From Hanleya hanleyi (Eukaryota > Mollusca > Polyplacophora > Lepidopleurida > Hanleyidae), in assembly GCA_036873755.1 (NCBI GenBank), contig JAVTVY010019002.1:16718-80717 (forward strand): a stretch of DNA of 64,000 nt. The letters are read 5' to 3'. Made by a program: the position numbers and the translations under genes. Each line of letters begins with the position of its first letter. Within the stretch, counting starts at the first letter, position 1. The notes under the pieces were generated by a model. The model saw nothing but the letters and a program-made list of their open reading frames with translations, was not told the origin of the DNA and ran no database searches. Below, piece by piece: positions 15,585 to 52,818 of the stretch.

Positions 15585-17480
15585 TATGCAAACGAGGGGA
15601 GGTCACAGAGGTCAAAGGTCAAAAGTAGTTCCGGCACTTCCGGTCACGTGACCTTTGTATTCCTCCGCGGTGATGCGGTCGGTTCCGGCGGTGCTGCGGT
15701 AGCTTCCGGTTCCGGGAACACGCCTCCGCAAAGTAGTCCGGAGACAAATACGCTGGGAGAATGTCCGGCAATGTCCGGGAATCTCCGGTAATAAAATGTT
15801 CGGTCATCTCAGGCAATCTCCGGTCATCTCCGGCAATGTCCGGCCTTCTCCATGAGAATAGATAGCCTTTATCTGCCCTTCCGAAGCATCAATGGACTGT
15901 ACAGGGCCCCCGACAATATCGCCATCTATTTGCCCATGTTAACTGGCAAGTGGGGAACCCTCAGTTTCTTCATACAATGGCAGAAGGTAAAGGGTCCTAG
16001 TGGGAATTGAACCGCTTTATCTGGAGGCAGACACGTTATCCATTAGACCACGAGTCACAGGCGGCAAACCAAGGTTGAAAATAGCATATATATGTCTACC
16101 ACTATCACTATATGGCCCATACTGGCGCACTGGCCAATGTCGAACCTACACCACACATGCTCATTGCGGTATGGGTTGTTTGGTCTTGTTTTTCACGCCT
16201 CACCACGTAGAACACGACGGACGGCAACCTCCCCACAGCGCATGCTCCATTTCGCAGGCTCCATTACCATCCCTGCCACCAATAGCGGAAGTTGACCTTT
16301 ACTACGTTGCTATGACGTGTAGGGGAAACCAACCAATGCACGGTTCAGTTTGAATCCGGCCGAACAACTCCTTTAGTGTTGCACATGAGCGAACTACTTT
16401 TCATATGCTCAGTCCAGATAAACAGGGAAAATTATCTCCAGATAATACTTTTTAACGCCAGGTCAACAGAGGTATTATGCAGACTTGAAAAGTAACCGAA
16501 ATGTTCGGAATCCGGTCCAAAAATCTGACTGGTGGCTGGGGTGTTATTAGATCCCCAGCGAGGTGGTTGGACGGACGGAGGCCCGAAGCGATTGGTTGAA
16601 ATTTTTTGAAAAAAGTCACTGTGCGCATGCGTAGGAGGTAAATTGCGCTGGGTGGACATTTTGGGATCTAGGTGGTCCCCTAATGGTCCGATTGTATCGA
16701 GTGACGTATCAATGTGTAGCATTCGTGAAGGAGCATCCGCCTGGACTAGTGAGTCGTCCGTTTTCAACATTCTGCGCACGCGCAGAAAGGAAATTGTGAG
16801 AAAAGGGCATTGGAAGGAACGTTTAGGTGGACCACTAGTGGCCGAGTGAGGAGCATCCGACGGGATGGGTGTGACGTAAAACTGACGTCATTCTGCGCAT
16901 GCGCAGTAGACAAAGTGTATTGGAATGGACGTTTTGGGGTCTCGGTGGGCCACTAATGGTCCACCGAGACTGGATCGAGTGAGGTATCAATGTGTAGCAT
17001 TCGTGAAGGAGCATCCGCCTAGTGTGTCGTCCGTTTTCAACATTCTGCGCAAGCGCAGATATGGAATTGTGAGAAAAGGGCATTGGAAGGAACGTTTTGG
17101 GATCGAAATGGGCGGCTAGTGGTCTGATTGGGTCGAGTGAGGTATCGTTGTGAAGCATGCGTGAGGGAGCATCCTACTGGGTGGATGTGGGTTAGGAATA
17201 TCGTCATCTAGGCATGCGCATTGTGGAAAAAGGGTATGGAAATAGACATTTTGGGGCCGACATGGCCCAATATTGGTCCGATTGGGTCGAGTGAAGTATC
17301 ACGTTGAAGCACTCGTGAGGGAGCATCCGAAGGGATGTGTGTAGCCCGTTTTCATCATTACGCGCATGCGCAGTCTGGCCGTAGTATAGAAAGCAGCAAC
17401 TTTGGGGGTGTGAAGGAAGGTGTTTGGGGTAGAAGAGGGACCATTCTTGGTCCGTATGCGTTTTGTGTAGTCTCATCTTG
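15585..17480. repeat. Left terminal inverted repeat with NRF-1-like palindrome array
   Basis: This matches the right TIR (50,745-52,818) in inverse orientation. From about 16,615 inward it is a tandem array of units near 150 bp. Each unit has a CTGCGCATGCGCAG-like palindrome (for example near 16,772, 16,893, 17,043, 17,360), a segment 'gtatcaatgtgtagcattcg', then GGAGCATCCG, then 'attttgggatctaggtgg' or similar. TGCGCATGCGCA fits the known NRF-1 consensus. No coding frame here is conserved with the right TIR. Confidence 0.85.
15992..16058 (-). pseudogene. tRNA-like sequence in the left TIR
   Basis: Read on the minus strand, it has an A-box TGGTCTAATGG (16,041-16,051) and a B-box GGTTCAATTCC (16,003-16,013), which fit pol III promoter consensus apart from G to A in the B-box. 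The D-arm-like 'aatggataacg' resembles arginine-type tRNAs. The anticodon arm folds only with a 6-base loop, the acceptor stem does not pair well, and a few bases are missing before the B-box relative to the right-hand copy. I call it a tRNA pseudogene or a tRNA-derived promoter. Confidence 0.6.
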
Positions 17481-18060
17481 TAGTTCTCTTGGTGCAGACC
17501 ACGATTTGAGGGTTGTCCATGTCGTCTGTGACGTCATCGTTGACGTCATCAGTAGGAGTAGTAGCGAAAGTGAGCATTCTGGAGGTGTGATGGGTCCGAA
17601 TGTGTCGTGGGGGTGTCATCTTGTAGCTCTCTGAATGTAGACGACGAGTGGTATGGTTTTCGTTGGAAGTCGCATCGTGCTACGCATGCGCAGGTGGGTA
17701 GTAGTAACGAAAGTGGGCATTCTGGATGTGCGTGGGCTTGTATTTGAGTGATTGAGAGACCATTCTTCGCTCCATTGGATCGTGGGAGGTGTCATCGTGA
17801 ATCACTCGTAGACTCCGACTGGACGGGTGTGGGTGGAAGTAAAGCTATATGGCCTGCATGCGCAGACAGAAAATTGTGGGAATAAAGGCATTGGAAGGAC
17901 CGTTATGAGATCGAGATGGACCGATATTGGTCTGAATGGGTCGGGGAGGTATCAGTTTGAGGCACTCATGGCTCCGACTGGAGGGCTTGGGTCGTGGAAC
18001 TGACGTCATTTTGCACATTCGCAGTCGTGGAGTAGTAGAAAAAGGACAGCTTCGAAAGTG
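17481..18060. repeat. Diverged inner part of the GCGCATGCGC unit array
   Basis: Further, more irregular units with 'ctacgcatgcgcaggt' (17,681) and 'cctgcatgcgcagac' (17,852), several TGACGTCA sites near 17,530, and 'cattggaaggaccg'. It ends at 'gtgcgcaagggcactatatc', a junction sequence also found at about 43,224 beside the fifth zinc-finger gene. Confidence 0.65.
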
Positions 18061-18417
18061 CGCAAGGGCACTATATCACATCGGGGGGGGGGATATATAT
18101 TTCATCCAAGTATAGCGGATAGCGGTTGTCGTGAATAACAACAAGTTCAGCAACGTTCATATAGTTTATTATCTCCAATGTTACATCATACCCAGGCTGG
18201 GGAAACCGCTCTGGGTATGTTCATTAAGTTCACAGAAAAAGAAAGTTGAAATATCAAACACCATGTTTTATTATTTAACGCACCGTAACATTAGGTACAA
18301 GTGTTTACAGAGCTCATGTCAACGATCAGCATGTAGACATATAGAGTATATACGGCATGTTATGGTATTCATCAGTGCATGGGTGAATCCGTTCAGCCTA
18401 GGGGGTGGTCGATCATT

Positions 18418-19295
18418 TTAGTCACGTAAAATGTGACATTCGTTGTAATCTCCACCTGCCATTTGGTGTTGGGGCGTTGTTGTCGGGCCCATTCCATTAC
18501 ATTCAATTGGTCCACTTGGTCCAGTACCGTACCAGTCCAGGGACATACGATCTGTAATGATGAAGGGCTGGTCGAACACGAGGCTATTGTGACTGGGGTG
18601 AAAGTACCGGATTTGGCCCGTCGCTTTATGCCGTAATAAATACCCAAAGGTGAGATTTAATTTGAAAGCTGTAGCTTGGTCCTCAAAAATAGTATAGGCG
18701 TAGTGGGAGAGGCTGGTGTTATCCTCTAACCGGAAATTGTACAAGTCCAATATAGGGCGATGGCGGTGGAAACAGTGCCAGACCATGGGCCAATGGCGTC
18801 GATAGATGTCACTCACTGGATGGTCTTCGGGTAACAGATCGCTAGGAACATTTATGGGCTCGTCCACAAAATGTTCGTCGTTGTCAGGCGTAAGACTGGG
18901 AACCGTAACGCTAGGGGCCGGCTGGATATCCAGGCTCTTCTGAACTGTGGGTATAGGCGGGCTCTCCGTGATCGCATCACCAGTGGCATTCGTCTCATCT
19001 TCACTGGGTCTGACCCTCCTGGGTGCCTCTTTAGTGGGAAGTTGTCGCCCAAACCGTACAGACGGGGCATGGATCAAACATTGGTGCTGTCTTAACTGAC
19101 TGGGTCGTTTGAAGAGTCGACCGCAATCGTCGCATTGTTCCGTCGCGCCCTCCGCAGTAAATGATCCTCCCGATTGAATGACCGTGCGCAGGTAACTATA
19201 CAAGTATACCGTGCATCGTTGTTAATGGATGCCTCGTGGCGTGGTAAATTATCTAGACGAGTAAAGTGCTTCTGGCAAGTTGTGCAAGAGAACAT
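18418..19295 (-). pseudogene. C2H2 zinc-finger viral-element protein, copy 1
   Basis: The N-terminus has a finger with 'CTTCQKHFTRLDNL', a second (CARSFNRED) and a third (CDDCGRLFKRPSQLRQH). A Pro/acidic linker of about 90 residues follows, then a domain starting 'DIYRRHWPM' with 'FHRHRP', 'LYNFRL', 'DQATAFKLNL' and 'VFDQPFIIT'. I recall similar finger-plus-domain regions in predicted invertebrate proteins that continue into DNA polymerase B, so a replication link is possible, but no polymerase motif follows here. Lesions include an extra codon in finger 2 near 19,200, a frame change near 19,150 and another near the C-terminus (about 18,530). Function unknown. Confidence 0.7.
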
Positions 19296-19599
19296 ATCGT
19301 CTGTGGTCCAAATGGGTCGTGTTGATGTCGTGTTGATGCAAACGTGGGGGCGAATCAGGTTGGTGTCATTTGTATGGTGAGCCGATTCATTCTACGTATG
19401 CGCAGTCGTGGATGAAGCACTTATGGGGTAGAGGCCGACTGGGGTGGTTGCTATTGGAAGTCACGTTATTCAACGCATACGCAATCGGTTAGTAGTAGAG
19501 AAAGGGCAGTTTCGGAGGTGCGCATGTGCGAGTAGTTGACAAAAGGTCCAGGTTCGGTCTGGCTACTTGGTAGTTATTTTCCCTGTAGGATACCGGTTA

Positions 19600-19629
19600 C
19601 AGGAAGTGTGTGTGTGTGTGTCTGTGTGG

Positions 19630-19660
<31 letters not shown>

Positions 19661-19725
19661 CTCGAGCGCGCGTGTTTAAGGGTGCGCGTGTGTGTGTTTG
19701 TGTGTGAGTTCAACCGTGCACACTG
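19600..19725. repeat. GT-rich microsatellite
   Basis: Interrupted (GT)n tract, mirrored by a (CA)n tract at 25,780-25,845 in the opposite palindrome arm. Confidence 0.95.
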
Positions 19726-20158
19726 TCAAATTACATTCTCTCAGAGAACTTTCTCTCGTCGGAACAATATGCCTAGACACATTTAATATAAACACAACCA
19801 AGAGACATCAACAACAACAGGAACATTGCGTATTACACATTTTATTATCCCCTTCATCACAACACACCCAAACTAGGGGAGGCACTATGGGTATGTTTAC
19901 AACTCTCGTATGCTCTTCTCCGCGTATCAGACGCATTGTTGGCTGCTACTGTCCAATCCTTTCTGCATTTGTTGTCCATGTCTGCCTTACTATTTATCCA
20001 CAGAATAAAAATTAAAATATCAAACACCATGTTTTTTATTCTAAGCACCGTAATATTAGGTGCATGTTTTTACAGAGCAGACTTTTTACGATCAGCATGT
20101 GAACATATAGAGAATATGCGCCATATTACGGTATCCATCAGTGCATGGGTGAATGCGT

Positions 20159-21074
20159 TCATTCGGTGGGGTGGTTAATCAGTCTAGCCACAAAAAACGT
20201 GACATTGGTCACCCTATCCACCTGCCAATTTTCGTTGGGGCGTTGTTGACAGGCCCATTCTGAGGGATCCACGGTCTGCAGCTGCTCTAGCATCGACTCC
20301 AGTGAACTCCTATTGATGATGGTGAACGGCTGGTCAAATACCCTGATGTTGGCATTGCAATAGACATACCGCGGTTTCTCTGTCTCTGTATCTTCCAGCA
20401 CATAGCCAAAAGCGAGATGTACCTTGAAGGCCGTAGTTTGGTCCTTGAAGATGGCATCCACGTATCTGTGCAGAGAGGTGAGGTCGGTCAGTCGGAAATT
20501 ATAGATGTCTAGCAGCGGCCGATGACGGTGGAAACATCGCCGGATCATGGGCCAGTGGCGTCGATAGATGTCACTTACTGGATAGGTGTCCGGTAGGAGA
20601 TCGCTGAAGACATCCATTGGATCTTCCTGGAAATGTTCGATGTCGTCAGGCCAATGACTCGGAACCATATCACTAGGGGCCGGCTGGATATCCAGGCACT
20701 CCTCGACAGCGGGTATAGGCGGGCTGTTTAAGCGCGCTTTACCAGCGACATTAGTCTCCCTGGGCTCGTCTTCAGTGGGACAGACAATTCTCTTCAGTGG
20801 GAATTTGTCGACCAAGCCGTGATGTCGGACCATGACTCGAGCGTTGGTGCTTTCTTAACTGACGGGGCCGTTTAAAGAGTTGACCACAATCGTTACATTG
20901 TTCCATCGTTCCCTCGTGGAGTAACCGTTCGTGGCGCAGTAAAGCATCTTCCCGATTGAATGACCGTGCGCAGATTATACAAGTATACCGTACGCCGTTA
21001 TGGGTGGAGATCCCGTGGCGTCGTAAATTATTTTGACGAGTAAACTGCTTCTGGCAAGTCATACAAGAGAACAT
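20159..21074 (-). pseudogene. C2H2 zinc-finger viral-element protein, copy 2
   Basis: Starts at the ATG at 21,074 (MFSCMTCQKQFTRQNNL). It has three C2H2 fingers in residues 1-85: C-x2-C ... H-x4-H, then CIICARSFNRED ... H-x4-H, then CNDCGQLFKRPRQL ... H-x4-H. A linker follows, then the conserved domain ('DIYRRHWPMIRR', 'DIYNFRLTDL', 'DQTTAFKVHLAFGYVL', 'VFDQPFTIINRSSL', 'QQRPNENWQV'), stopping after 'LINHP'. A frameshift near 20,780-20,800 separates fingers from domain, and the mirror copy at 24,407 has the same lesion. The domain half is otherwise clean. A TATA box and inverted CCAAT lie upstream. Function unknown; DNA binding is inferred from the fingers. Confidence 0.75.
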
Positions 21075-21120
21075 GTCGGCTGTGGATCAGGGACTGATGA
21101 ACATTCCCACCTACCGCCTG

Positions 21121-21175
21121 TTTTATAACCCCTCGCCCTACAAGAGAACACTCCTACGTTGTTCTCTCCACCAAT
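21121..21175 (-). promoter_or_regulatory. Core promoter of zinc-finger copy 2 (TATA + CCAAT)
   Basis: On the minus strand, TATAAAA at 21,121-21,127 lies about 47 bp before the ATG, and an ATTGG (inverted CCAAT, 21,171-21,175) lies about 45 bp further upstream. The same pair at the same spacing occurs before copies 3 and 4. Confidence 0.7.
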
Positions 21176-21583
21176 CAGCGCATCGCCGTCCTGTCCTGTT
21201 CACACAGGATTACAAGCGTCTGGTCCGTCATCATAATTCAGCCGTCGTCCATTGGAGAATATCCGCGTCCATAATCCAAAGACCTATTCCGTATTCCATA
21301 TAACAGTATTAGCACTAAATTCGAAAAGACAGTCATAGTATGCATAAACATGGGCTTGTTTCCTGCAAGGGAGAAGCGGTCAACAGTTTTCAATGATGCC
21401 GGCAAGACATCATGATCTTCCAAAATTATCAAATCCGTATCGCTGATCAGTATTCTTAATCCATAATATTCGTTGTAAAGTCGTCATCTTTGAATGTGAC
21501 TGTTCATATGAGTACCACGAAGGTCTTGAAGTACATGGGTTCATGCGGCCCCTAGCCCCGGGTTAAGCGGAATTAGACACAAG

Positions 21584-23590: not shown

Positions 23591-23597
23591 CATGTGG

Positions 23598-23818: not shown

Positions 23819-24309
23819 GGGAGCTTCACGTCACGTCCGTCGATGTATATAGATGAACACGCATGCATGCGGGGCCGCCATCAGGGTCCAGGCAGAACCA
23901 CCAGATGAAGGTCACTTCCTGTGATGATACACAACTCAAACAGTGTACAGAACATGAATGTCGCGTTACTAAGCAACACTAGTGTTATAGGGTACCAAAT
24001 CAACATGGTAAAGCGGTACTTTGGTGCTTTATTGCGTCTATTTCGTGCAATAAAGCAGCGATGCAGGCTTACCGAACACCAAAGTAGTTAATACAGAGGG
24101 AGCGAGTTAAGCATCGGGTGTTTCTACATGACCCGTCTCATGTACGCGTCCGAGAGACTGCTTTCTCTACAACTCATGGAATCACAGATAATCTTCGTTG
24201 GCTACACCGCATGATTCACATGTACGTCCACGGGTCATATGCCAACCCCTATGGCTAATAAATTGGTGTGCACGTGACTCCTGTGTAGACAGGACAAGAC
24301 GGCGATGCG

Positions 24310-24360
24310 CTGATTGGTGGAGAGAAGGATTGTTCTTTTGTAGGGCGAGGGGTTATAAAA
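24310..24360 (+). promoter_or_regulatory. Core promoter of zinc-finger copy 3 (CCAAT + TATA)
   Basis: TGATTGGTGG (inverted CCAAT) at 24,311-24,320 and TATAAAA at 24,354-24,360, with the ATG at 24,407. It mirrors the arrangement at 21,121-21,175. Confidence 0.7.
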
Positions 24361-24406
24361 CAAGCGGTAGGTGGGAATGTTCATCAGTCCCTGATCCACA
24401 GCCGAC

Positions 24407-25325
24407 ATGTTCTCTTGTATGACTTGCCAGAAGCAGTTTACTCGTCAAAATAATTTACGACGCCACGGGATCTCCGCCCATAACGGCGCACGGTATACTT
24501 GTATAATCTGCACACGGTCATTCAATCGGGAAGATGCTTTACTGCGCCACGGACGGTTACTCCACGAGGGCGCGACGGAACAATGTAACGATTGTGGTCA
24601 ACTCTTCAAACGGCCCCGTCAGTTAAGAAAGCACCAACGCTCGAGTCATGGCCCGACATCACGGCTTGGTCGACAAATTCCCACTGAAGAGAATTGTCTG
24701 TCCCACTGAAGACGAGCCCAGGGAGACTAATGTCGCTGGTGAAGCAAACTTAGACAGCCCGTCTATACCCGCTGTCGAGAAGTGCCGGGATGTCTAGCCG
24801 GTCCCTAGTGATATGGTTCCGAGTCATTGGCCTGACGACATCGAACATTTCCAGGAAGATCCAATGGATGTCTCCAGCGATCTCCTACTGAACACATATC
24901 CAGTAAGTGACATCTATCGGCGCCACTGGCCCATGATCCGGCGATGTTTCCACCGTCATCGGCCGCTGCTAGACATCTACAATTTCCGACTGACCGACCT
25001 CACCTCTCTGCATAGATACGTGGATGCCATCTTCAAGGACCAAACTACGGCCTTCAAGGTAAATCTCGCTTTTGGCTATGTGCTGGAACATGCGGAGGCA
25101 GAGAAACCTCGGTATGTCTACTGCAGTGCCAACATCAGTGTATTTGACCAGCCGTTCACCATCATCAATAGGAGTTCACTGGAGTCGATGCTAGAGCAGC
25201 TGCAGACCGTGGATCCCTCAGAATGGGCCTGTCAACAACGCCCCAACGAAAATTGGCAGGTGGATAGGATGATCAATGTCACGTTTTTTTGTGTGGTTAA
25301 TCTGATTAACCACCCCATCGAATGA
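24407..25325 (+). pseudogene. C2H2 zinc-finger viral-element protein, copy 3
   Basis: Inverted copy of copy 2 with nearly identical fingers and C-terminal domain. It shares copy 2's frameshift (the finger frame stops at 24,709 after 'TEENCLSH') and has in addition an in-frame TAG near 24,796 in the linker and an altered end ('FFCVVNLINHPIE'). The domain part reads openly from 24,813. An AATAAA lies at 25,443-25,448, about 120 bp after the stop, and the mirror position beside copy 2 has the same motif. Non-functional as a full protein. Confidence 0.75.
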
Positions 25326-25442
25326 ACGCATTCACCCATGCACTGACGGATACCGTAATATGGCGCATATTCTCTGTATGTTCACATGCTGATCGTTGAA
25401 GTCTGCTCTGTAAAAACATGTACCTAATATAACGGTGCTTAG

Positions 25443-25448
25443 AATAAA
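25443..25448 (+). terminator. Polyadenylation signal of zinc-finger copy 3
   Basis: AATAAA in 'cttagaataaaaaacatgg', conserved in mirror image near 20,040 downstream of copy 2. Confidence 0.5.
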
Positions 25449-25770
25449 AAACATGGTGTTTGATATTTTAATTTTTATTCTGTGGATAAATAAGAAGGCA
25501 GATATGGACACCAAATGCAGAGAGGATTGGGCAGTAGCAGCCAACAATGCGTCTGATATGCGGACAAAAGCATACGAGAGTTGTAAACATACCCATAGTG
25601 ACTCCCCTAGTTTGGGCGTGTTGTGATGAAGGGCATAATAAAATGTGTAATACGCAATATTCCTGTTGTTGTTGATGTCTCTTGGTTGTGTTTATGTTGA
25701 ATGTGTCTAGGCATATTGTTCCGACGAGAGAAAGTTCTCGGAGAGAACGTAATTCAACAGTGTGCACGGT

Positions 25771-25779
<9 letters not shown>

Positions 25780-25825
<46 letters not shown>

Positions 25826-26264: not shown

Positions 26265-26310
26265 CAGGCGGTAGGTGGGAATGTTCATCATTTCCAGATT
26301 CACAGCCGAT

Positions 26311-26593
26311 ATGTTCTCTTGCACAACTTGCCAGAAGCACTTTACTCGTCTAGATAATTTACGTCGCCACGAGGCCTCCACCCACAACGATGCAAGGTAT
26401 ACTTGTATAACCTGCGCACGGTCATTCAATCGGGAGGATCATTTACTGCGCCACGAAAGCTTACTCCACGAGGGCGCGACGGAACAATGAGACGATTGCG
26501 GTCGACTCTTCAAACGACCCAGTCCGTTAAGACAGCACCAACGTTTGATTCATGTGAGTGACATCTATTCGACGCCATTGGCCCATGATCCGG
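26311..26593 (+). pseudogene. C2H2 zinc-finger viral-element protein, copy 4 (truncated)
   Basis: Begins MFSCTTCQKHFTRLDNL, with two fingers, then a TGA at 26,488-26,490 at the start of finger 3. Finger 3 remains recognisable beyond the stop. At about 26,550 the sequence jumps from the end of finger 3 directly to the 'VSDIY' start of the C-terminal domain, so the whole linker is deleted. The domain itself breaks off at about 26,593, where unrelated sequence begins. It is the mirror partner of copy 1. Confidence 0.7.
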
Positions 26594-41808: not shown

Positions 41809-41900
41809 AAAGAGAAGGATTGACATGTGTTAATGCAAATTGTATTAAGTATTTGATCTGAAAAAAAGGGGAAAAAAATGTAAACATTTTTTTTTCTCCT

Positions 41901-41913
41901 GAGGGGAAAGTAA
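41901..41913 (+). promoter_or_regulatory. Polypurine tract
   Basis: GAGGGGAAAGTAA directly before the right LTR, preceded by a T-rich run. It is the expected plus-strand primer. Confidence 0.8.
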
Positions 41914-43098
41914 TGTCACAAATCTATGTCTAATCTTTATTGACCGTCTGCTAATTGGTATTTTCGCAGACGTTGCTATACTATGGTACAGCGCCTGACA
42001 TCAAAAAGCTGATTTTCACTGTTTAGGTTATACTCTGTGAGAGGTTACCCAGCCGCAGGTATAATCGGCGCTGACCTAGATTCATTTCGGTGCGTTTATA
42101 AAAACGCAAATTGTGTTATGGTCAAATATAACTACGGGATATGATGTGCCATATGAAATACCATATTTTGATTTTAAAATATGTTGTGGAATAGGTTTTG
42201 TTATACGTAAATGTCAAGTACAAGTATGAAAATAATGCACGTTGTTTGTTCCCGATCGTACTGGGAACGTACCCGTCAAACAGGTTTGTGGATATGTAGT
42301 GTTACGTGTGCAAGTGTATTGTTCTGTGTAAATCAGGTTTTGTGTACGAAATCCTCGTCAGTCTCTGCCAAGCTGTATTAGAGTGAGGACGTGGTGTGGC
42401 CGACAACGCCCTGGAGACTCACTGTGGTTGTACTTGATGTGAAATCCGTGAGTAGGGTATATGTACGATATATATATATGTGCATTGGTATAATATAACG
42501 GTAACGTATTTGTTTATTAGAAACGTAGTGGGAACTACACTGTAAAAAAACAAACAAACAAACACGTTTGTGTTATTTACACATTGTTTGTCAAAATGTT
42601 ATTTTGATCTTACAATTGAGGTTTCTGATAATATGTGCCGTTATGGTTGACTAGTTCGGGTATTTAATATGGGAAAATGTTCTCAAATTATATTATTGCA
42701 GACAACCTGTTTGTACGTTGGATATCCGTCTGCGATGGTGTGATGTTAGCCATGCAAGACGAGGCATGCGTTCACGGTTGAGACGTGGCGTGTGAAACCC
42801 GATGACCATTTCGTTGGGCGGTGGGACGACACAGACGTTGACGTAGGTCGTGGACGTACACCGTTGGGCTGCGTGTGGCCGGGTTCCGGAGTTCTACTCG
42901 CCTCTCATCTCCGGGTGATAAGTTAAAATAGAAATGGATCGTTTTCGTCATGTCCTTGTAAATTATTGTATTTTGTAACCCGCGGTTGTGTTTTGTATTG
43001 TATTGTATTGAGCTCAATATTAAATGTGTTATGTTGCAAAACAAATTGTGTTGTCATTAGTCTAGTTCTGACGTCACCATCACGTGTTAATCATGACA
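41914..43098 (+). repeat. Right LTR of the Gmr1-like element
   Basis: 1,185 bp, TGTCACAAATC...CATGACA. It includes 'gtgcgtttataaaaacgc' (42,091), a TATA-type promoter candidate, and a TATATATATATG run near 42,470. Confidence 0.95.
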
Positions 43099-43103
43099 AA
43101 GAG

Positions 43104-43216
43104 TTCCAATTTTCCCGTAGACGTAGGGTCCGGATTTTCAACATCCGGGTTTTCCCCGGCCCGGCCGCAGCGCGCGCGCTCGGGTTTTCCGGCCGAGTGC
43201 GCGCGCGCGCGGGTTA
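43104..43216. repeat. Innermost left TIR segment of the cassette-bearing element
   Basis: Matches the reverse complement of 50,595-50,703: 'ttccaattttcccgtagacg', 'gggtccggattttcaac', CCCCGGCCCGGCCGCAGCGC and GGTTATCCGGAAGTG are shared. Homology stops after this, which sets the inner TIR boundary. Confidence 0.9.
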
Positions 43217-43523
43217 TCCGGAAGTGTGCAAGGGCACTATATCACATCGGGGTATATATTTCATCCAAGTATAGCGGAAAGCGGATGTCGTGAATAACAA
43301 CAAGTTCAGCAAGGTTTATACAGTTTATTATCCCCAATGTTACATCATACTCAGGCTGGGGGAGTCGCCCTGTGTATGTTTAGTATGTTCACAGCAAAAC
43401 AAATTGAAATATCAAACATCATGTTTGATTATTTAACGCACCGTCACATTTAATGTTTACATAGCTCAAGTCAACGATCAGCATGTAGACATAGAGAGTA
43501 TATACGGCATGTTATGCTATTCA

Positions 43524-44441
43524 TCAGTGCAAGGGTGACGCATTCAGCCGATGGGAGTGGTCGGTCAGCTTGGTAACGAAGAACGTAGCATTGGTGTCCC
43601 TCTCTACGACCCATTGTGTGTTGGGGCGTTGACGATGTGCCCATCTCAAGGGATCCACGGTGTCCAGTTTCTCCAGCATCGTCTCTAGCGACGCCGGGTT
43701 AATGATGGTGAACGGTTGGTCAAACACATGGCTGTTATTACTGGCATAATAATACCGTAACTGGTCCGTCTCTGTGTGACGTAAGATGTACCCGAAAGCG
43801 ACATTCAATCTGAAGACCGTAGCTTGGTAATTGAAAATGGCTTCCACGTAGCTGCGTAGACGGGTGAGGTCGGTCAGTGGGAAATTGTAGATATCTGGAA
43901 TGGGGCGATCACGGTGGAAAGTGTGCCGTATCATGGGCCATTGGCGCCGATAGATGTCATTCATTGGATGGGCGTCCTGTAACAGATCGCTAGGAATATC
44001 CACTGCATCTTCCAGAAAATGTTCGATGTCGTCAGTCGTATGACTGGCAACAGTAATGCTAGGGATTGGCTGGATATATAGGCTCTTCTGAACTGTGGGT
44101 ATAGGCGGGCTGTCCGTGATCGCATCTCCAGTGGCATTCGTCTCCCCGGGCTCATCTTCACTGGGTCTGACCCTCCTGGGTGCCTCTTTAGTGGGAAGTT
44201 GTCGCCCAAACCGTAGAGACGGGGTATGAATCAAACGCTGATGCCGTCTTAACTGACTGGGTCGTTTGAAGAGTTGACCACATTCATTACATTGTTCCGT
44301 CGTCCCCTCGTGGAATGAGCCTTCGTGGCGCAGAAAATGATCCTCCCGATTAAATGACCGTGCGCAGGTTATACAAGTATACCTTGCGCCGTTGTGGATG
44401 GAGGACTCGTGCCGTCGCAAATCTTCCAGGCTCAGCATCAT
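43524..44441 (-). pseudogene. C2H2 zinc-finger viral-element protein, copy 5 (N-terminus replaced)
   Basis: An open frame of 305 codons on the minus strand. The first finger is missing its Cys pair; the frame starts near 'LEDLRRHE'. Finger 2 (CITCARSFNRED) and finger 3 (CNECGQLFKRPSQLRRH) are intact, followed by the Pro/acidic linker and the 'DIYRRQWPMIRHTF ... IYNFPLTDL ... FDQPFTIIN' domain, without a frameshift. It ends with a different tail after 'KLTDHSH'. Upstream, at about 44,425, the sequence joins abruptly to the packaging-ATPase remnant on the other strand, so its promoter and start are lost. It is the cleanest copy of the C-terminal domain in the window. Confidence 0.75.
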
Positions 44442-44733
44442 CTACATTGTGCAGAATCTGTTCAGTAAAAACAAAGAACATAGGAACATCAGCTTAAATG
44501 CCCGCTACCTGGTGGTCTTCAAAAACCCGAGAGATACCACTCAACTGCTGCACCTGGCGAGACAGATGTATCCCGGCCGCACACCGTTTGCGTTGGAAGC
44601 CTTTAAAGATGCGACAACCCCTCAGCACGGGTATATGCTCTTCGACCTCAAGCAAGCCACCCCCGACCACCTTCGACTACGGACCAGCATCTTTCCCGGA
44701 GAGACCCGGAGTGTACATGCAAAAATAATGTAA
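44425..44733 (+). pseudogene. Packaging-ATPase C-terminal remnant
   Basis: About 100 codons with 'IIYIVQNLFSKNKEHRNIS', 'LNARYLVVFKNPRD', 'LARQMYPG', 'FKDATTPQHGYMLFDL' and 'DHLRLRTSIFPGE'. The order (hydrophobic strand ending in QN, then a SLN-Y-FKNPRD block) matches what I recall of the A32/FtsK-type packaging ATPases of Polinton- and adintovirus-like elements downstream of Walker B. Walker A and B would lie upstream and are missing: the coding part begins at the junction with the zinc-finger gene. It cannot be active. The assignment rests on recognition of the pattern, not on a catalytic motif. Confidence 0.55.
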
Positions 44734-44784
44734 ACACACCCACAGTGAACCCACCAGCTGGAGTGTGTGTTTGATGATGGGGAT

Positions 44785-44790: not shown

Positions 44791-44882
44791 AAGAATTAAT
44801 ACCACAGCATGGTTGACTTTGGCTCTGTTCTCTGAGGTAGATAAAAAGAGCAGAGTTGTGAGTTCTAGCATTAGCATTGTAC

Positions 44883-45227
44883 ATGATGTCTGCGCGAGTA
44901 CGGAAGCACGCTCGGACGCTCCGTGTATTGAAGACGGCCCCACCCGAGTTGGTCCGAACCATTGTACGCGGTGCGGATCCTGACCTTGTGCGCTGTCTGT
45001 GCGAGATCGGGCACAACCTGTTAAAAGGCAACGTTCCACTGACTCCGGCTCAGAAGACCAAGTTGGCCAAGCATAAGACAGGTCTCCGAACCCTAGTCCA
45101 GAAGCGAGTCTCTCAAACACAAAGGAAAAAGGTGTTACAGAAAGGCGGCTTTCTCGGGGCCATCTTAGCACCGTTGGCCGCTTCCGTGTTGGGTCCAGTA
45201 TTGGGTGGACTTTTCGGCCGGCAATGA
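44883..45227 (+). CDS. Small basic virion core-like protein
   Basis: 114 codons from ATG 44,883. It is rich in Lys/Arg through residues 1-85 ('VRKHARTLRVLKTAPPELV', 'CEIGHNLLKGNVPLTPAQK', 'KLAKHKTGLRTLVQKRVS', 'QTQRKKVLQKGGF') and ends in a hydrophobic, Gly-rich tail ('LAPLAASVLGPVLGGLFG'). I recognise this as a recurrent small gene next to capsid genes in invertebrate Polinton/adintovirus-like elements. A DNA-condensing or membrane-active virion role is inferred from composition only. The stop overlaps the next start (ATGA at 45,224-45,227). The frame is undamaged. Confidence 0.65.
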   Translation: MMSARVRKHARTLRVLKTAPPELVRTIVRGADPDLVRCLCEIGHNLLKGNVPLTPAQKTKLAKHKTGLRTLVQKRVSQTQRKKVLQKGGFLGAILAPLAASVLGPVLGGLFGRQ

Positions 45228-46063
45228 ACCACACGAAAAAAATGGTCCTCGTCGAACCACGGTTCCTTCAAAACCTCCAATCGCCCTATCCTGTTCCACC
45301 TACGGTGAAGACCATAAACACACTCGATGAAGAGATGCAACAGATCTTACAGAGACCGGGGTTAAGCGACAGTGAGAAAGTACAACGGTACAATAAGACG
45401 CTTCAACGGTACATGACGTTCATGGACCAATATAAACCCCTCTCTACCCCACTACCACTACCACCACCACCAAAACGCGACACACCGCCGACCTAAGCAC
45501 CGCTCCAACAGCCGCCATTACCAGGGGTACCACCCACAGCCCCACAGTGGGTCGAAGACGAAGTGCTGTAGAGTGTACCTGCATCGTCCAAGAAACAAGC
45601 TGGCCTGGTATTACAACGGATGAAATAGAATCCTAACATGACTTGGAATGATAAAGGCGAACTCCTGGTACAGAATCAGGTGGTCCCCGAGACCCACATG
45701 ACGGATTTAGTGAATGACCTGATGCGTCAACGCAGGTCGCACACGGATCCTCGAGGATGGGAGGTCTTCGCTCAAGGCTTGAAAGACATGCATGTACCAC
45801 AGGAATTGGTGGGGAATCCCCAGCGCTGGGCCTTTATGCAGCGGACCCAGCAATCGCCGAGTGGCCCACTACCTTCTTGGGAAGCCGAGTGGGAACCGGA
45901 GTCACCCCCCGAAACACCACCACAATGGGCACCTTCTTTTCAGGCCTTTAAAAAACCACCCTTGATCAGGACACCCCACATCTCCAGAGCCGTGACACGT
46001 AGCAAGTCACCGCGACGAACACGACGCCGGACACAACCGCCCAAGGCCTGGAACACCTATTAA
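45224..46063 (+). pseudogene. Pro-rich/Arg-rich structural-cassette protein, broken
   Basis: The first part, 45,224-45,496, starts MNHTKKMVLVEP and includes an acidic helix (LDEEMQQILQRPGLSDSEKV) and a poly-Pro end. The second part, 45,638-46,063, has 'TWNDKGELLVQNQVV', 'HMTDLVNDLMRQRRS', 'NPQRWAFMQ', and a basic end 'RSKSPRRTRRRTQPPK'. I take both as one ancestral gene because related elements have these blocks in one protein. They are separated by a stop at 45,494, a frame change and an in-frame TAG at 45,626-45,628. The basic tail could bind DNA or act as a nuclear signal. Function unknown. Confidence 0.6.
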
Positions 46064-46087: not shown

Positions 46088-47821
46088 ATGTTTTACCTCA
46101 CCCTACCCAGTAACAGTTCGCCGGATGTGTTTCCTGGCCAAGTACGTCACCCAGTTACCACAACCGTTGCATTTATCTGGACGATGGGAATGTGGCCTCG
46201 TGGATATCCAATACCCTTACTCGTGGTACAACGTGCGAGCCAATGAAGTGTGGTACGAGGTGACCTACGAAGGCAAAAACACCCGACTCACCCTCCCCGA
46301 AGGCCAATACGATACCCCCAAGGAGTTCATGCAGGGGCTGGCAAGACTGTTGCATTATAAGGCTCTACGGGAGGTCGCGAATGTTTCAAAACCCATCAAA
46401 TCCTTTCCCTCCAAGAATCACGTGGACTTCGATTACAACGCACACAACGACAAGGCACAGATCCTCCTCACCGCCAACGTGAGTGTTGTACTGAGTCCTA
46501 TCCTAAAGCAAATGCTGGGTCTCGCTCACACGACCTACAGGGGTCCATCCGAGGACCATGGCCAGATCCCGATGGATATGAAGTCGGGTATGTACGGACT
46601 CTACGTCTACTCGGACGTAGTCGACAACCACATCGTGGGCGATATCAACACACCTATGTTACGGGTGGTCCCCATTGTTACGTCTAAACGACAATAGAAA
46701 AACGCAACAGAAATATTTGTGAAGTCGAATATAAAACAAACAAATATTTATTTACAATACTAAAATCATATACATATTAAGTTGGGTCAATATAGCAAAC
46801 AAACGTCAAATAAAATCTTACTGCTCAATGTTATACCGGTGTAACTCTCCAAGTTCGTACCAACGCACAAATCTCTATACAGTTCGTGACGTGTAGAAAT
46901 CGCGTTCATGTATTTCCACAGTCAATATCGCTCAGCTGTTGTCCAGTTTTCGTCAGTTCAATCACGTAGATAAAACAGCGGTCGAACAGGAATATATAAT
47001 CCAGTAGTCAGTTATCTCAGGCAAATGTTAGCCAATAAGAATAATGATGATGATGCACCCACGTAAGTCTGTTTGAAACCTCCAGTCAGTAATTACGGGC
47101 AAAGTAAATCAATCAAAGCCAGTTCTTAAATTCTCTCTCGAGTGAGCGAACGAGACGGTATTTATATCCTACGGGGAATTCGCAATTATTCTATATGACG
47201 TGGGCCGTCCGCTCCACAAACCACGAAAGTTCTCGAATATGCATTACATCACCATTTGGCCTAGATACAATTATGATTATGCTCGAGAAAGTTCGAAGCA
47301 AATAACCCACGTAAACAAATTAATGTCAGTTTGACATTCCAGAAGCGTGCATCGTAAACAACGCTATCAGTCTATATGTATAGAGAGCGCTACAACATAA
47401 CTAACAGTATCATACGGGGTCTGTTGATGAATGAGTAGATGGCGCTGTTTAATACAGATCTTTCGTACAGCGGCCATTTGCAATTATGACAGATGGATGA
47501 CTTACATACTACGTAGCTCTATTATTCTATTATTATAATCACATAATAGAAGGTCAACAAGTCCACCTCAGTTCTACTGTTCTAGAACGATCTTCAGTGT
47601 CTAACTCTATACTGCAATACTATGACACCATTAAAAAGACGTATGGAGATCAAGTCATCCACAGTTTCACCCACATGCTCTACCTACCCGTACGACAAAC
47701 CGTCATCAACACTATCACGGTGGATATAAGAGATGACACGGGACGACTGGTGGCATTCGAACGAGGAAAAGTGGTGCTGACACTTCATTTTCGACAAGCA
47801 CGTGCTCCCCACTTTGTATAA
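46088..47821 (+). pseudogene. Penton-like (minor capsid) protein, frameshifted and split by a solo LTR
   Basis: Starts MFYLTLPSNSSPD at 46,088; a frame change near 46,130 leads into 'YVTQLPQPLHLSGRWECGLV', 'IQYPYSWYNV', 'LPEGQYDTPKEF', 'LSPILKQMLGL' and 'SGMYGLYVYSDVVDNHIVG'. At 46,676 a 952-bp LTR intervenes, after which 'SFTHMLYLPV', 'TITVDIRDDTGR' and 'GKVVLTLHFR' continue to the TAA at 47,819-47,821. The phases before and after the LTR agree. I recognise this family as the smaller capsid protein beside the major capsid gene in Polinton/adintovirus-like elements. The penton role is inferred from family context; the jelly-roll fold is not proven here. The stop overlaps the next start (TAATG). 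Confidence 0.6.
46676..47627. mobile_element. Solo LTR in the penton-like gene
   Basis: A 952-bp insertion starting TGTTACGTCTAAACG and ending ATACTATGACA, with the 4-bp duplication CCAT (46,672-46,675 and 47,628-47,631). It has TG...CA ends, no coding capacity, and is not related in sequence to the Gmr1-like LTRs. An internal retrotransposon was probably lost by LTR recombination. Confidence 0.8.
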
Positions 47822-48224
47822 TGAAGGTCCCTTACGAGTGCGATGCACGCAGCTATATGGACTATTATGCCCAATATGCCGGGGGTGCCTTCCCGTCTTT
47901 AGTGGTACACGCATGCAACGAGGACATGGGCTGGGGAACATACTGGGAAGCATCGTGAAAACGTTCCTGCCCTTGGTGACGCGTTGGGTGAAAGCAATCG
48001 GCAAACAAGCGGTACGCAGTGGACTGCAAGTGGCCGGTGATGTCTTGGGGGGTACGGCACCCAAAGAAGCCTTGAAACGGCGGCCCAACGAAGCGGGAGG
48101 CGTCTTGGTGGCCAAAGCACAACGCACCGTAGGGAATAAAAGACCTGCACCACCGAGACCACGCACCAGTCGACGACCGACCCAGCGACGACGCACATCG
48201 AAGACCCAGGATATCTTTTCTTAA
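47821..48224 (+). pseudogene. pX/Mu-like basic virion protein, frameshifted
   Basis: Starts at ATG 47,821 (MKVPYECDARSYMDYYAQYA, then GGAFP). A frame change near 47,895 leads to 'VFSGTRMQRGHGLGNILGSI', an amphipathic stretch, 'LQVAGDVLGGTAPKEALKRR' and a basic end 'RPRTSRRPTQRRRTSK', stopping after 'DIFS'. The GHGLG plus basic-tail pattern is one I associate with adenovirus pX/Mu-like or pVI-like core proteins of adinto-type elements. Genome packaging or membrane disruption is the usual guess for that family. The stop (48,222-48,224) lies 2 bp before the capsid ATG. Confidence 0.55.
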
Positions 48225-48226
48225 AC

Positions 48227-49512
48227 ATGTCCTTGATCCACGCAGATTCCTGCCCCTCCACCAACAGTGAATTTGATTTGTGGACCGTGCCGCCCACACA
48301 GACCAGTGCCGAACAAGGATTATGGGTGGAGCATCTCCCGCTCTCCAGCATCAACGAAACAGGGCCCATCGAGTTCACCATCAGTAATGCGGATACGGCC
48401 TGTGGATTTAGCCCATACATACTTGTATGTGAAAGCCAAGGTCGTCAATGGGGATGGCTCCAGAATCATCCAAGCTGCAACGGTGGGCCCGACGAATCTC
48501 TGGCTGCACTCGATGTTTCAACAGGTGGATATTTTTCTCAGCGACAAACTCATCAGTGACTCGATCAACACGTACCCCTATCGAGCCTACATCGAGACGC
48601 TGTTGTCGTATGGACGAGAGGCTAAACAATCTCAGCTACCAGGACACAGCCGAGCACATGAGCACGGTGGACAATGAAGGATATAACAAACGGAAGGCTT
48701 TCACTGCGAACGGCGCCTCGGTGGATCTCATGGGTCGATTGCACGCAGACATTTTCATGCAAGACCGGTACCTCTTGAACAAGATCCCCATCAAAATCCG
48801 ACTGATACGGGCGCCTCCGACCTTCGCCTTGATGGCCACTGACGTACACGGACATGCAGCCGACTATGCGATTGTCATCCAAGACGCAGTCCTGTATGTC
48901 CGAAAAGTGAAACCGAATCCAGCCGTTCAATTGGGACACCTCAAAGCCTTGGAAACAAAACCAGCCCAGTACCCTATCCGACGTGTACAAACCAAAGTGT
49001 TCTCTGTGCCTGCTGGAAATATGAGCGCCAACAAAGAAAACCTGTTCCTGGGGGAACTACCCAAGCGATTGATCCTGGCCTGTGTGGAAAATACCAGTTT
49101 CAGCGGAGCCTACCCAGAGAATCCGTTTGACTTTAAACATTTCGGCATCAATTTTGTGGCCCTGCATGTGGATGGACAACAGGTCCCAGCCACGGCCTTA
49201 ACACCGAACTTTGGGCGCAGGAATTTCATTCGAGCCTATCAGAGCCTGTTTACAGCCACCGGTCAAATCGACCAGGACGAAGGGAATATGATCAGTCGGG
49301 AGGACTACGCGAACGGATACACGTTGTTCTGTTTCGATCTGACCCCCACCTTAGAGAACGACCATCAGCTGGCCATGGCCAAGCAGGGCAATTTACGGTT
49401 GGAAATCCACTTTGCGCGAGCCCTCGGGACCACCGTCAATGTGATCTGCTACGCCGACAACATCATTCAAGTGGACAAGACGCGCAACGTCATGTGTGAC
49501 TTTGCCACCTAA
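48227..49512 (+). pseudogene. Major-capsid-like protein (F54H12.2-like family), two frameshifts
   Basis: About 430 codons spread over three frames: 48,227 to about 48,400 ('WTVPPTQTS', 'INETGPIEFTISNAD'); about 48,405 to 48,640 ('DLAHTYLYVKAKVVNGDGS', 'VGPTNLWLHSMFQQVDIFLS', 'INTYPYRAYIETLLSYG'); about 48,640 to 49,512 ('LMGRLHADIFMQDRYLLN', 'YPIRRVQTKVFSVPAGNMS', 'NLFLGELPKRL', 'GYTLFCFDLTP', 'LRLEIHFA'). I recognise this as the family usually named 'uncharacterized protein F54H12.2-like' in invertebrate genomes. I take it as the hexon/major capsid analogue of Polinton-like elements, by context and beta-rich pattern. Frameshifts near 48,400 and 48,640 make it non-functional. The last 290 codons are clean. 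Confidence 0.7.
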
Positions 49513-49513
49513 C

Positions 49514-49987
49514 ATGGATACAGACCAGATAACCACCGTGCTGGAGAATGACCCAGGGACACGTATGGTCTTTCAAGGGGTGTTCGTCCGAGATGTGTTC
49601 CCATTAGACCGTATGTATCCTGCCGCTTACGTTCTCAACACGGACCCGATGAATCGGCCCGGTGAACATTGGGTGGCCGTGTACTTGACAGAAGCGCAGG
49701 GCGAATACTTTGACCCGTACGGCCTGCCACCCCTCCATCCCGATTTAACAGACTTCATGGATCAAGGCACAGAGATGTGGTGTTGGAACAGTGAAACGTT
49801 GCAAAGCCTGACCAGTAGCGTGTGCGGACAATATTGCTTGTTTTACCTGTACCATCGATGCCGGGGCAGAACCTTATCTACCATCGTACAGATGTTTGAC
49901 GAGTACCCCAAGGCCGAGGACCGCGATGTACTCGTATATGACTGGGCCGCCCATCATTACAGTGTACAAGCCCCGTTATGGGCTTAA
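49514..49987 (+). CDS. Adenain-like cysteine protease
   Basis: 157 codons from ATG 49,514, one base after the capsid stop (TAACATG). The catalytic set fits adenovirus protease: His in GEHWVAVYL (about residue 55), Asp in 'EYFDPYGLPPLH' (about residue 71), Gln/Cys region 'SSVCGQYCLFYLYHRCRG' with the nucleophile Cys near residue 107. In adenoviruses and adinto/Polinton elements this enzyme matures virion precursors. Length is slightly short of adenain (about 200 residues). The frame is intact and all catalytic residues are present, unlike most neighbours. It is the last gene of the cassette. Confidence 0.85.
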   Translation: MDTDQITTVLENDPGTRMVFQGVFVRDVFPLDRMYPAAYVLNTDPMNRPGEHWVAVYLTEAQGEYFDPYGLPPLHPDLTDFMDQGTEMWCWNSETLQSLTSSVCGQYCLFYLYHRCRGRTLSTIVQMFDEYPKAEDRDVLVYDWAAHHYSVQAPLWA

Positions 49988-50594: not shown

Positions 50595-52818
50595 TTCACC
50601 CGCGCACTTCCGGATAACCTGGGAGCGCGCTGCGGCCGGGCCGGGGAAAACCCGGATGTTGAAAATCCGGACCCTACGTCTACGGGAAAATTGGAACTCT
50701 TCTGTATTCGGAGGTAGTTTTAGTCAAACCGGAAGTGACGTCTGTGCGAACAACCCACACCACCAAACCAAAACCATGGATCCATACCGGTGGGTCAAAC
50801 ACACTCCCACGCATCCCCAAAATGTCTGCTTTCTATACTACGACCAGACTGCGCATGCGCAGACTATTGAACACGGACGAACCATGAGTCCAGTCGGATG
50901 CTGCTTCACGAGAGCTTCAAAATAAGACCTCATACGACTCCATCGGACCCATAGTGACCCATGTCGGCGCCAAAATGTCTTTTTCCATAACCTTGGTCTA
51001 CAGCGCATGCGTAGAATGATGTCAGTTTTACGTCACATCCACCCAGTCGGATGCTCCTTCACATATGCTTCACATTGATATCTCACTCGACTCCATCGGA
51101 CCATTAGGGGCCTACCTAGACCCCAAAACGTCTATGTCCATGCCCATAATTCCCTGTCTGCGCATGCGCAGAATGTTGAACACGAACGACACACTAGTCC
51201 AGGCGCATGCTCCCTCACGAGAGCTTCAAAATAAGACCGTATACGACACCATCGGCCCATTAGGGGCTCCCCTAGATCCCAACACGTCTATTTCCATACC
51301 CTTTTCCCACAATTCCCTGTCTGCGCATGCGCAGAACGTAGAAAACGAACGACACACTAGTCCAGGCGGACACACTAGTCCAGGCGTTTCGGGCTCAAAA
51401 TGTCTATTTCCAAACCCTTTCCCACAATTCCCTGCCTGCGCATGCCTAGAATGACGATATTCCTACCCCACATCGACCCAGTCGGATGCTCCCTCACGTA
51501 TGCTTCACAACGATATCTCACTCGACCCAATCAGACCACTAGTGGCCGATCTCGATCCCAAAACGTTCCTTCCAATGCCCTTTTCCCACAATTCCCTATC
51601 CGCGCATGCGCAGAATGTTGAAAACGGACGACACACTGGTCCAGGCGGATGCTCCTTCACGAATGCTTCACATTGATACCTCATACGACTCAATCGGACC
51701 AATAGTGGCCCACCTAGTCCCCAAAACGTTCATTCCAATACACTTTGTCTACCGCGCTTGCGCAGAATGACATCATTTTAAAACATACCCATCTCGTCGG
51801 ATGCTCCTTCACGAATGCTTCACATTGATACCTCACTCGACACAATCAGACCATTAGTGGTCCACCTATACCCCAAAACGTTCCTTCCAATGCCCTTTTC
51901 CCAAAATTCCCTGTCTGCGCATGCGCAGAACGTTGAAAACGGACGACACTCTAGCCCAGGTGGATGCTCATTCACGAATGCTACACATTGATACGTCACT
52001 CCATCCAATCGGACCACTAGGGGCCCACCTAGACCCCAAAACGTCTATTTCAATAACCTTTGTCTACATCGCATGCGCAGAATGATGTTAGTTCCACGTC
52101 GCACCCCTCCCGTCGGATGCTCCTTCACGTATGCTTCACATTGATACCTCACTCGACCCAATCGGATCAATAGTGGCTCACCTAGACCCCAAAATGTCCA
52201 CCCAGCGCTATTTACCCACTACGCATGCGCAAAGTGACTTTTTCAAAAAATTTCAACCAATCGCTTCGGGACCCCGTCCGTCGTATTCTACGTGGTGAGA
52301 CGTGATAAACAAGACCAAACAACCCATACCGCAAGTTTGCTGCCTATGACTCGTGGTCAAATGGATGACGTATCTGCCTCTAGATAAAGCGACCCGGGTT
52401 CAATTCCCACTAGGACCCTTTACCTCTGCCGCTGCATGGAGAAACTGAGGGTTCCCAACTTGCCATTTAACATGGGCAAATGGACGGCGATATTGTCGGG
52501 GACCCTGTACAGTCCATTGATGCTTCGGAAGGACAGATAAAGGCTATCATGGAGATGGCCGAACATTGCCGGAGATGACCGGACATTGCCGGAGATGACC
52601 GGAGATGACCGAACATTATATTCCCGAAGATTGCCGGACATTCTCCCCGCGTATTTGAAATGTCGGAACTACTTGCGGAGGCGTGTTCCCGGAACCGGAA
52701 GCGACCGCAGCACCTCCGGAACCGGAAGCGACCGCATCACCGCGGAAGGATACAAAGGTCACGTGACCGGAAGTGCCCGAACTACCTTTGACCTCTGTGA
52801 CCTCCCCACATTTGCATA
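50595..52818. repeat. Right terminal inverted repeat with NRF-1-like palindrome array
   Basis: The inner 110 bp match 43,104-43,216; 50,703-51,400 match 33,947-34,713; the outer part matches 15,585-17,480, all inverted. Ten or so units of about 150 bp each carry a TGCGCATGCGCA-type site (near 50,850, 51,003, 51,160, 51,320, 51,602, 51,915, 52,070, 52,213) and 'gatacctcactcgac' or similar. Outermost: GTCACGTGACC, CCGCGGTGATGCGG-related sequence, GGGGAGGTCACAGAGGTCAA, TTTGCATA. Confidence 0.9.
52349..52420 (+). pseudogene. tRNA-like sequence in the right TIR
   Basis: A-box TGGTCAAATGG (52,354-52,364) and B-box GGTTCAATTCC (52,397-52,407), preceded by GACCCG as in many tRNA T-arms. It is the inverted partner of 15,992-16,058 and keeps bases lost there. 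The anticodon arm has a 6-base loop and the acceptor stem is not complementary, so it is not a working tRNA. Confidence 0.6.

What the first reader, a model, noticed from the sequence alone, without database searches (positions are those of the whole stretch)
15585..52818. Polinton/adintovirus-like element with 2-kb TIRs, rearranged and invaded by at least five transposons
Seen: inverted terminal sequences at 15,585 and 52,818 share outer motifs, a tRNA-like unit and a unit array; between them are a virion gene cassette and five zinc-finger genes. Known: adenain-type protease, two capsid proteins, a packaging ATPase and small basic core proteins form the virion set of Polinton/adintovirus-type viruses. 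Inference: this is a genome-resident relative with unusually long, array-type TIRs and an extra outward-facing zinc-finger gene. I do not recognise that layout from described groups.
Basis: partly seen in the sequence, partly recalled or inferred. Interest (0 to 1): 0.9.

Follow-up and report, generated by a model that had tools for sequence, protein, structure and literature searches.

The report
Polymerase-less Polinton with zinc-finger terminal protein
A broken copy of a virus-like mobile element, common in this animal genome, that keeps its shell, packaging and insertion genes but lacks its own DNA-copying enzyme and instead carries a separate replication-starter protein fused to DNA-binding zinc fingers, probably so that it can borrow a relative's enzyme.

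Summary
The window holds a degraded copy of a high-copy Polinton/adintovirus-type family in a 2.48-Gb eukaryote genome. Five other copies are 11-14 kb, four with 1.8-2.2-kb array-type TIRs. All five show 6-bp target duplications; 9 of 10 ends read AGTAGTA. They encode an rve-chromodomain integrase, double-jelly-roll capsid protein, adenain-like protease and (four of five) packaging ATPase, but no detectable polymerase. It is C2H2 fingers fused to the terminal-protein (TP) domain that normally begins Polinton PolB, ending just before the vOTU domain. The TP is 53-63% identical to that of a PolB gene in the same genome. Separate PolB-bearing relatives exist: 46 of 150 scored places have frames of at least 1300 aa; in the two examined, the end located reads AGTAGTA. 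TP divergence among three stand-alone lineages gives dN/dS about 0.14-0.34.

Best reading: a helper-dependent Polinton bringing its own zinc-finger-tethered primer protein and borrowing a relative's polymerase. Anatomy is shown; priming and borrowing are inferred. Four of five capsid copies lack the ZF-TP gene. The 15.6-52.8-kb span is composite and the tRNA-like unit is unconfirmed.

The parts
15585..18100 (+). Array-type TIR, outer subtype plus unit array
   Evidence: (84.8% to 52818-52335), (42 matches of the outer part in the genome)
18231..19400 (-). Zinc-finger/terminal-protein (ZF-TP) gene copy 1, frame broken
19999..21209 (-). ZF-TP gene copy 2 (lower arm of a 92% palindrome 19298-21209 / 24279-26150), frame change near 20790
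24279..25484 (+). ZF-TP gene copy 3 (upper arm of the palindrome)
26301..26554 (+). ZF-TP fragment (finger part only)
28373..28703 (+). TIR fragment; two blocks 86-100% to outer/mid TIR of intact copies
33947..34714 (+). TIR array segment, closest partner of the inner right TIR
34714..43098 (+). LTR retrotransposon inserted in the TIR (LTRs 97.6%, TSD AAGAG); pol ORF 37561-41808 with integrase before RT
43099..43229 (+). Inner TIR segment, continuation of 33947-34714
43524..44441 (-). ZF-TP gene copy 5: C2H2 fingers (5' end lost) + TP domain (about residues 136-305)
44429..44735 (+). 3' part of packaging ATPase gene (309 of 660 bp compared); junction with ZF-TP marks an internal deletion
44862..45227 (+). 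Small basic ORF (core-protein-like by composition only)
   Evidence: no convincing family
45629..46063 (+). ORF of the virion block, unnamed
46125..46697 (+). Penton-like (minor capsid) ORF, name inferred from position
   Evidence: 34.5% to N-terminal part of P0114, which continues into MCP sequence; no Pfam match
46701..47560 (.). ~0.86-kb stretch with no match in the five copies read
47781..48224 (+). Basic ORF preceding MCP
48224..49512 (+). Major capsid protein gene, broken into three frames (48227-48385, 48402-48638, 48625-49509)
49514..49987 (+). Adenain-type cysteine protease
   Evidence: Peptidase_C5, 19.1 bits, below cut-off 21.3; homologue L050 26.6 bits
50601..52818 (-). Right array-type TIR, inverted

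Best explanation
The finding is a decayed copy of a PolB-less derivative of a Polinton/adintovirus lineage. Relatives run TIR - [ZF-TP, outward, in part of the copies] - small ORF - two related ORFs - integrase - stalk-like ORF - ATPase - core ORFs - penton-like - basic ORF - MCP - protease - TIR. ZF-TP is a stand-alone terminal protein: C2H2 fingers plus the PRD1-like priming domain that in canonical Polintons sits at the N-terminus of PolB. Proposed mechanism: the fingers hold the TP on the element's own TIR. A hydroxyl residue in the loop before the last strand primes synthesis at the repeated AGT-AGT terminus (as adenovirus does at CATCAT; recalled). The polymerase is supplied in trans by co-resident PolB-bearing relatives with the same terminal motif. 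Integrase then inserts the product with a 6-bp duplication, and the virion genes may package it. Shown: gene content, TIR adjacency, no PolB found in the copies read, TP homology, TSDs, shared terminal motif, presence of PolB-bearing relatives. Inferred: DNA binding by the fingers, priming, polymerase borrowing, packaging.
For: Integrase rve E 1.5e-10 plus Chromo E 8e-7. 6-bp TSDs in 5 of 5 copies, 9 of 10 ends AGTAGTA (by eye). A PolB C-terminal piece finds only its own locus among 53 sources, and a PolB middle piece only its own locus among 57. ZF-TP next to a TIR in 20 of 20 loci. The TP-vOTU query covers ZF genes only within residues 41-199, never the vOTU; database homologues continue into vOTU. 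TP model pLDDT 78, order b-a-b-b-a-a-loop-b with Thr in the loop, as described for D1/TP in PMC11071308 sections 6-9. 43 of 50 rows of the structure list are Y-family polymerase little-finger domains, the relationship that paper reports. dN/dS of TP among three stand-alone lineages about 0.14-0.34. PolB-bearing relatives; DNA_pol_B_2 E 7.9e-9; same terminal motif and nearby TGCGCATGCGCA at the two ends located.
Confidence: 0.6

Rival explanations
1. ZF-TP is an interference or regulatory factor: a polymerase-less TP that occupies TIRs or the helper polymerase and restrains related elements, or acts as a transcription repressor, rather than priming the element's own replication.
For: Three copies carry Lys and window copies 2-3 carry Glu at the putative linking position; the gene lacks polymerase and vOTU; zinc-finger proteins often regulate transcription (general knowledge).
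Against: Thr is kept in 16 of 19 matched copies and in the PolB TP itself; the gene travels inside the element beside its TIR.
Confidence: 0.2
2. The elements move by integrase with host repair or host replication alone; ZF-TP and the virion genes are passengers.
For: TSDs and long TIRs in ZF-less copies; a TIR-only derivative without coding match in its middle exists.
Against: No stop in the matched MCP stretch in 126 of 133 scored places (hand count), dN/dS 0.27 among 7 copies; TP is constrained between lineages.
Confidence: 0.12
3. The window is simply a canonical Polinton that lost PolB by local deletion.
For: PolB-bearing relatives with 63-76% identical virion genes exist in the same genome; this copy does have an internal deletion at 44.43 kb.
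Against: Its closest relatives (93-97% MCP identity) show no PolB in the five copies read, and ZF-bearing ones have a different TIR-adjacent gene.
Confidence: 0.05

Closest known systems
Polintons/Mavericks and adintoviruses (PolB-bearing, animal)
   Same: rve integrase, packaging ATPase, double-jelly-roll MCP, adenain-type protease, TIRs, 6-bp TSD (the TSD length as a Polinton trait is recalled)
   Different: No PolB found; a stand-alone ZF-TP gene in part of the copies; array-type TIRs of about 2 kb
Adenoviruses
   Same: Terminal protein encoded apart from the polymerase; triplet-repeat terminus (CATCAT in adenovirus, recalled)
   Different: Adenoviruses encode their own PolB; their TP has large helical extensions (PMC11071308); zinc fingers on it are not known to me (recalled)
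PolB-less polinton-like viruses and EVEs of protists
   Same: Capsid-bearing integrated elements without a detectable polymerase are reported (PMC10120064 passages)
   Different: No stand-alone TP is mentioned in the passages seen; PLVs mostly lack rve integrase and encode other replication proteins (PMC11071308 passages)
Bidnaviruses
   Same: Use Polinton-derived TP-PolB (PMC11071308)
   Different: Single-stranded DNA viruses (abstract start of PMC4061559) that keep TP fused to PolB

Membership tests
Polinton / adintovirus | Double-jelly-roll major capsid protein | tested here: met
   Model of homologue P0007 (53% identical to the window piece) pLDDT 87; PDB hits SGIV, PBCV-1, Sputnik, mavirus at E about 1e-14 to 1e-15; P0023 matches DJR-like_dom, the six other capsid relatives in that call did not. 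Window copy itself is broken.
Polinton / adintovirus | rve (retroviral-type) integrase | tested here: met
   L019:4258-5355 rve E 1.5e-10; absent from the window copy, whose only match lies in the LTR retrotransposon
Polinton / adintovirus | Packaging ATPase and adenain-type protease | tested here: met
   ATPase: Pox_A32 E 5e-6, Adeno_IVa2 E 9e-5; protease: Peptidase_C5 19.1 bits in window (below cut-off 21.3), 26.6 bits in L050
Polinton / adintovirus | Protein-primed PolB (TP-vOTU-polymerase) | tested here: not met
   No PolB middle or C-terminal piece and no vOTU found in the window or copies read; PolB is in separate relatives
Polinton / adintovirus | TIRs and 6-bp target duplication | tested here: met
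   5 of 5 copies read; not seen at 15585/52818 in the window
PRD1/adenovirus-type terminal protein | Four-stranded sheet with two helices, little-finger-like | tested here: met
PRD1/adenovirus-type terminal protein | Ser/Thr/Tyr linking residue between helix 2 and last strand, Pro/Gly nearby | tested here: inconclusive
   RPN-Thr in 16, Lys in 3 of 19 matched of 21 sources; Glu in window copies 2 and 3
PRD1/adenovirus-type terminal protein | Covalent attachment to 5' DNA ends | not testable with these tools
   Needs biochemistry

The most novel reading that the evidence does not exclude
A two-component Polinton economy: PolB-bearing relatives act as helpers, while a polymerase-less family with its own integrase and capsid has split the terminal protein off PolB (as adenoviruses did independently) and fused or kept it with zinc fingers. 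It thereby steers a borrowed polymerase to its own TIR: a terminal-protein-only satellite virus of animals.
Probability: 0.45. Interest if true: 0.9.

Novelty: new variant of a known kind. Interest (0 to 1): 0.77.

Why it matters
Protein-primed replication is a defining trait of Polintons and adenoviruses, and how terminal protein and polymerase came to be separate genes in adenoviruses is an evolutionary question (PMC11071308). Here a second, independent-looking split is seen in an animal genome. The TP is kept under constraint while the polymerase is absent, and a plausible helper lives in the same genome. That makes helper dependence, origin recognition by zinc fingers and TP-polymerase separability directly testable.

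Tried and rejected
A single canonical Polinton from 15585 to 52818: rejected as drawn, because TIR identities point to at least two sources and the five relatives measured are 11-14 kb. Apparent continuity of the left TIR at 17207/33998: not supported, because the 15.6-kb TIR runs on past 17207 into its own array and ZF copy. tRNA-like unit: not confirmed. MCP relatives in viral contigs: none. Naming the two ORFs before the integrase 'PC4-like' (a label in my scripts) is by eye only; Pfam gave nothing. The 'Bcl-2-like' label for the 124-aa ORF rests on E 0.1 and is not relied on. Pfam gave no match for the 191-aa PolB C-terminal piece; the middle piece does match DNA_pol_B_2 (35.3 bits, cut-off 25.8), while a sequence search of solved structures with it found no polymerase. 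TP model in BFVD: no match at E <= 0.001; rank 3 is a C2H2 protein of Drosophila-associated adintovirus 2 and ranks 11, 16, 22 are PolB entries, among unrelated phage and poxvirus rows. The two ends of one PolB-bearing element could not be paired. Part of the output was cut. Host species not identified. Papers: PMC11071308 sections 6-9 and passages; PMC10120064, PMC8363768 and PMC12721341 passages only; the adintovirus founding paper is not held. Absence from print of a stand-alone ZF-TP in Polintons rests only on search listings, most of whose papers I did not open.
Full report
What is in the window. The window is contig C16907:16718-80717 of a 2.48-Gb eukaryotic genome in 52,793 contigs. Its virion block runs from an ATPase remnant at 44429 to a protease ending at 49987. 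The capsid piece 48625-49509 has 360 database relatives at E <= 0.001 (best 120 listed), including 'F54H12.2-like' proteins of Amphiura and Styela and unnamed Littorina proteins. A model of one relative (P0007, pLDDT 87) matches SGIV, PBCV-1, Sputnik and mavirus double-jelly-roll capsids, and in BFVD a protein listed under Cotesia sesamiae bracovirus and adomavirus LO7. The window piece itself and most relatives tried give no Pfam capsid match; one of seven capsid relatives tried, P0023, does. The protease gives Peptidase_C5 at 19.1 bits, under the cut-off of 21.3; a homologue in the same genome gives 26.6. The window capsid gene is broken into three frames.

The TIRs. Self-comparison shows the reported pair (84.8%). 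It also shows a closer partner for the inner right TIR: 33998-34714 plus 43099-43203, split by an LTR retrotransposon with a 5-bp duplication AAGAG. Intact TIRs of other copies also match 28373-28703. The span 15585-52818 is therefore a composite of at least two related TIR sources plus insertions. The outer 0.5 kb at 15585 belongs to a TIR subtype with 42 matches (4,829 first-look candidates, 40 scored), both window ends included. In one inverted pair, C48127, the 2.3 kb read in the middle has no coding match to the six queries tried. The unit arrays carry TGCGCATGCGCA, which resembles the NRF-1 site (recalled): 18 sites against 0.08 expected.

Other copies. The capsid piece has 133 scored places at 93-100% identity, the window included, out of 24,693 first-look candidates; by hand count 126 of 133 have no stop in the matched stretch. 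I read pieces of 5 of the 133, picked for long contigs. Four have TIR pairs of about 1.8-2.2 kb; in C7792 only about 0.3 kb of pair is detectable. All five have perfect 6-bp duplications, read by eye from the flanks (GACGTA, TAAATA, CACGCT, TATGTA, TTTGTC), and 9 of 10 ends begin AGTAGTA. Element sizes, worked out from those ends, are about 11.2-13.9 kb. Their order is small ORF - two related ORFs - integrase (rve and Chromo) - stalk-like ORF - ATPase - core ORFs - penton-like - basic ORF - MCP - protease. In C35029 nearly all of the two related ORFs is missing, in C7792 the ATPase, and in C19846 most of the penton-like ORF and part of the basic ORF. The zinc-finger gene is present in one of these five (C7792; there its frame is broken). 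The other four instead have about 0.3 kb of right-end inner TIR next to the small ORF, as if one TIR had been copied over the other end.

The polymerase. A search with P0001 found 150 scored places, matching through TP and at least the start of vOTU (32,036 candidates); 46 of 150 (hand count) have frames of at least 1300 aa. Two were examined. On C42761 the order is the two related ORFs - integrase - ATPase - core - penton-like - basic ORF - MCP - protease, then PolB in the opposite direction; on C30329 PolB is followed by the same virion block, running to the contig end. Their virion genes are 63-76% identical in DNA to the window family. The middle of the C30329 frame matches DNA_pol_B_2 (E 7.9e-9, 35.3 bits against a cut-off of 25.8); its last 191 aa, with a DTDS motif (recalled as a PolB palm motif), give no Pfam match. 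The C-terminal piece finds only its own locus among 53 sources and the middle piece only its own locus among 57. No C2H2 pattern was found in L047-L052, so fingers sit on the stand-alone TP but not on the PolB N-terminus read here. That one PolB TP is 53-63% identical to the ZF-TP copies. One end of each PolB-bearing element was located; both begin AGTAGTATA with a TGCGCATGCGCA about 50 bp inside. Their other ends were not found.

Selection. Among 20 close ZF-TP copies mean dN/dS is 0.51 (177 of 190 pairs dN<dS); among 7 MCP copies 0.27. These were the best protein matches (one ZF copy, L015, aside), which biases dN downward. Between the three stand-alone lineages in the window dN/dS of the TP part is roughly 0.14-0.34 (dS 0.8-2.2; near saturation, and one lineage over 114 codons only), which argues for long-term constraint.

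Mechanism. Shown: elements with integrase and capsid genes and no polymerase found, a TIR-adjacent ZF-TP gene in part of them, and a co-resident PolB lineage with the same terminal triplet repeat. Inferred: ZF-TP primes at the AGT-AGT end, fingers give TIR specificity, and the polymerase comes from the relatives. The main doubts are the Lys and Glu variants at the putative linking residue, the ZF-less copies that still inserted, and the lack of any biochemical data.

Novelty. The element fails the PolB criterion of Polintons but passes the others tested, so I describe it as a polymerase-less derivative. In the library listings seen no title or abstract start describes a stand-alone zinc-finger terminal protein in a Polinton. 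Integrated elements without a detectable polymerase are reported for protists (PMC10120064 passages).

Noticed in passing
window 37561-41808: Intact 1415-aa gag-pol-like frame with integrase (aa 547-719) before reverse transcriptase (aa 1043-1197), the order recalled for Gmr1-type LTR elements; LTRs 97.6% identical, one LTR carries a ~1.7-kb insertion.
   Followed up: partly
window 19298-26150: Palindrome of two ZF-TP genes head to head (92%) around an RT fragment and a short second palindrome.
   Followed up: no
L019:2764-3135: 124-aa ORF with hydrophobic tail beside the TIR; Pfam Bcl-2 at E 0.1 only.
   Followed up: no
L056:2-2050, residues about 364-441: Inside the PolB frame of C30329 a stretch weakly resembles Vsr mismatch endonuclease (Pfam E 0.09, PDB sequences E 0.03).
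   Followed up: no
G000:C48127:260140-265190 (L053): Short element made mostly of two array-type TIRs, no coding match in the middle: foldback or MITE-like derivative.
   Followed up: partly
L010, L012, L019, L022: ZF-less copies have ~0.3 kb of right-end inner sequence also at the left end, suggesting one TIR was copied over the other, removing the ZF-TP gene.
   Followed up: no
L052:1-548 (C42761:177000-177547): Stretches up to 80% like the polymerase-less family's TIR array lie about 5 kb from the PolB-bearing copy; whether they belong to it is open.
   Followed up: no
L009:31-810 (C35029): CARD domain ORF (E 1.7e-6) about 11 kb from an element copy, probably host.
   Followed up: no
L023 (C50554): One element carries a duplicated protease/MCP stretch.
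   Followed up: no
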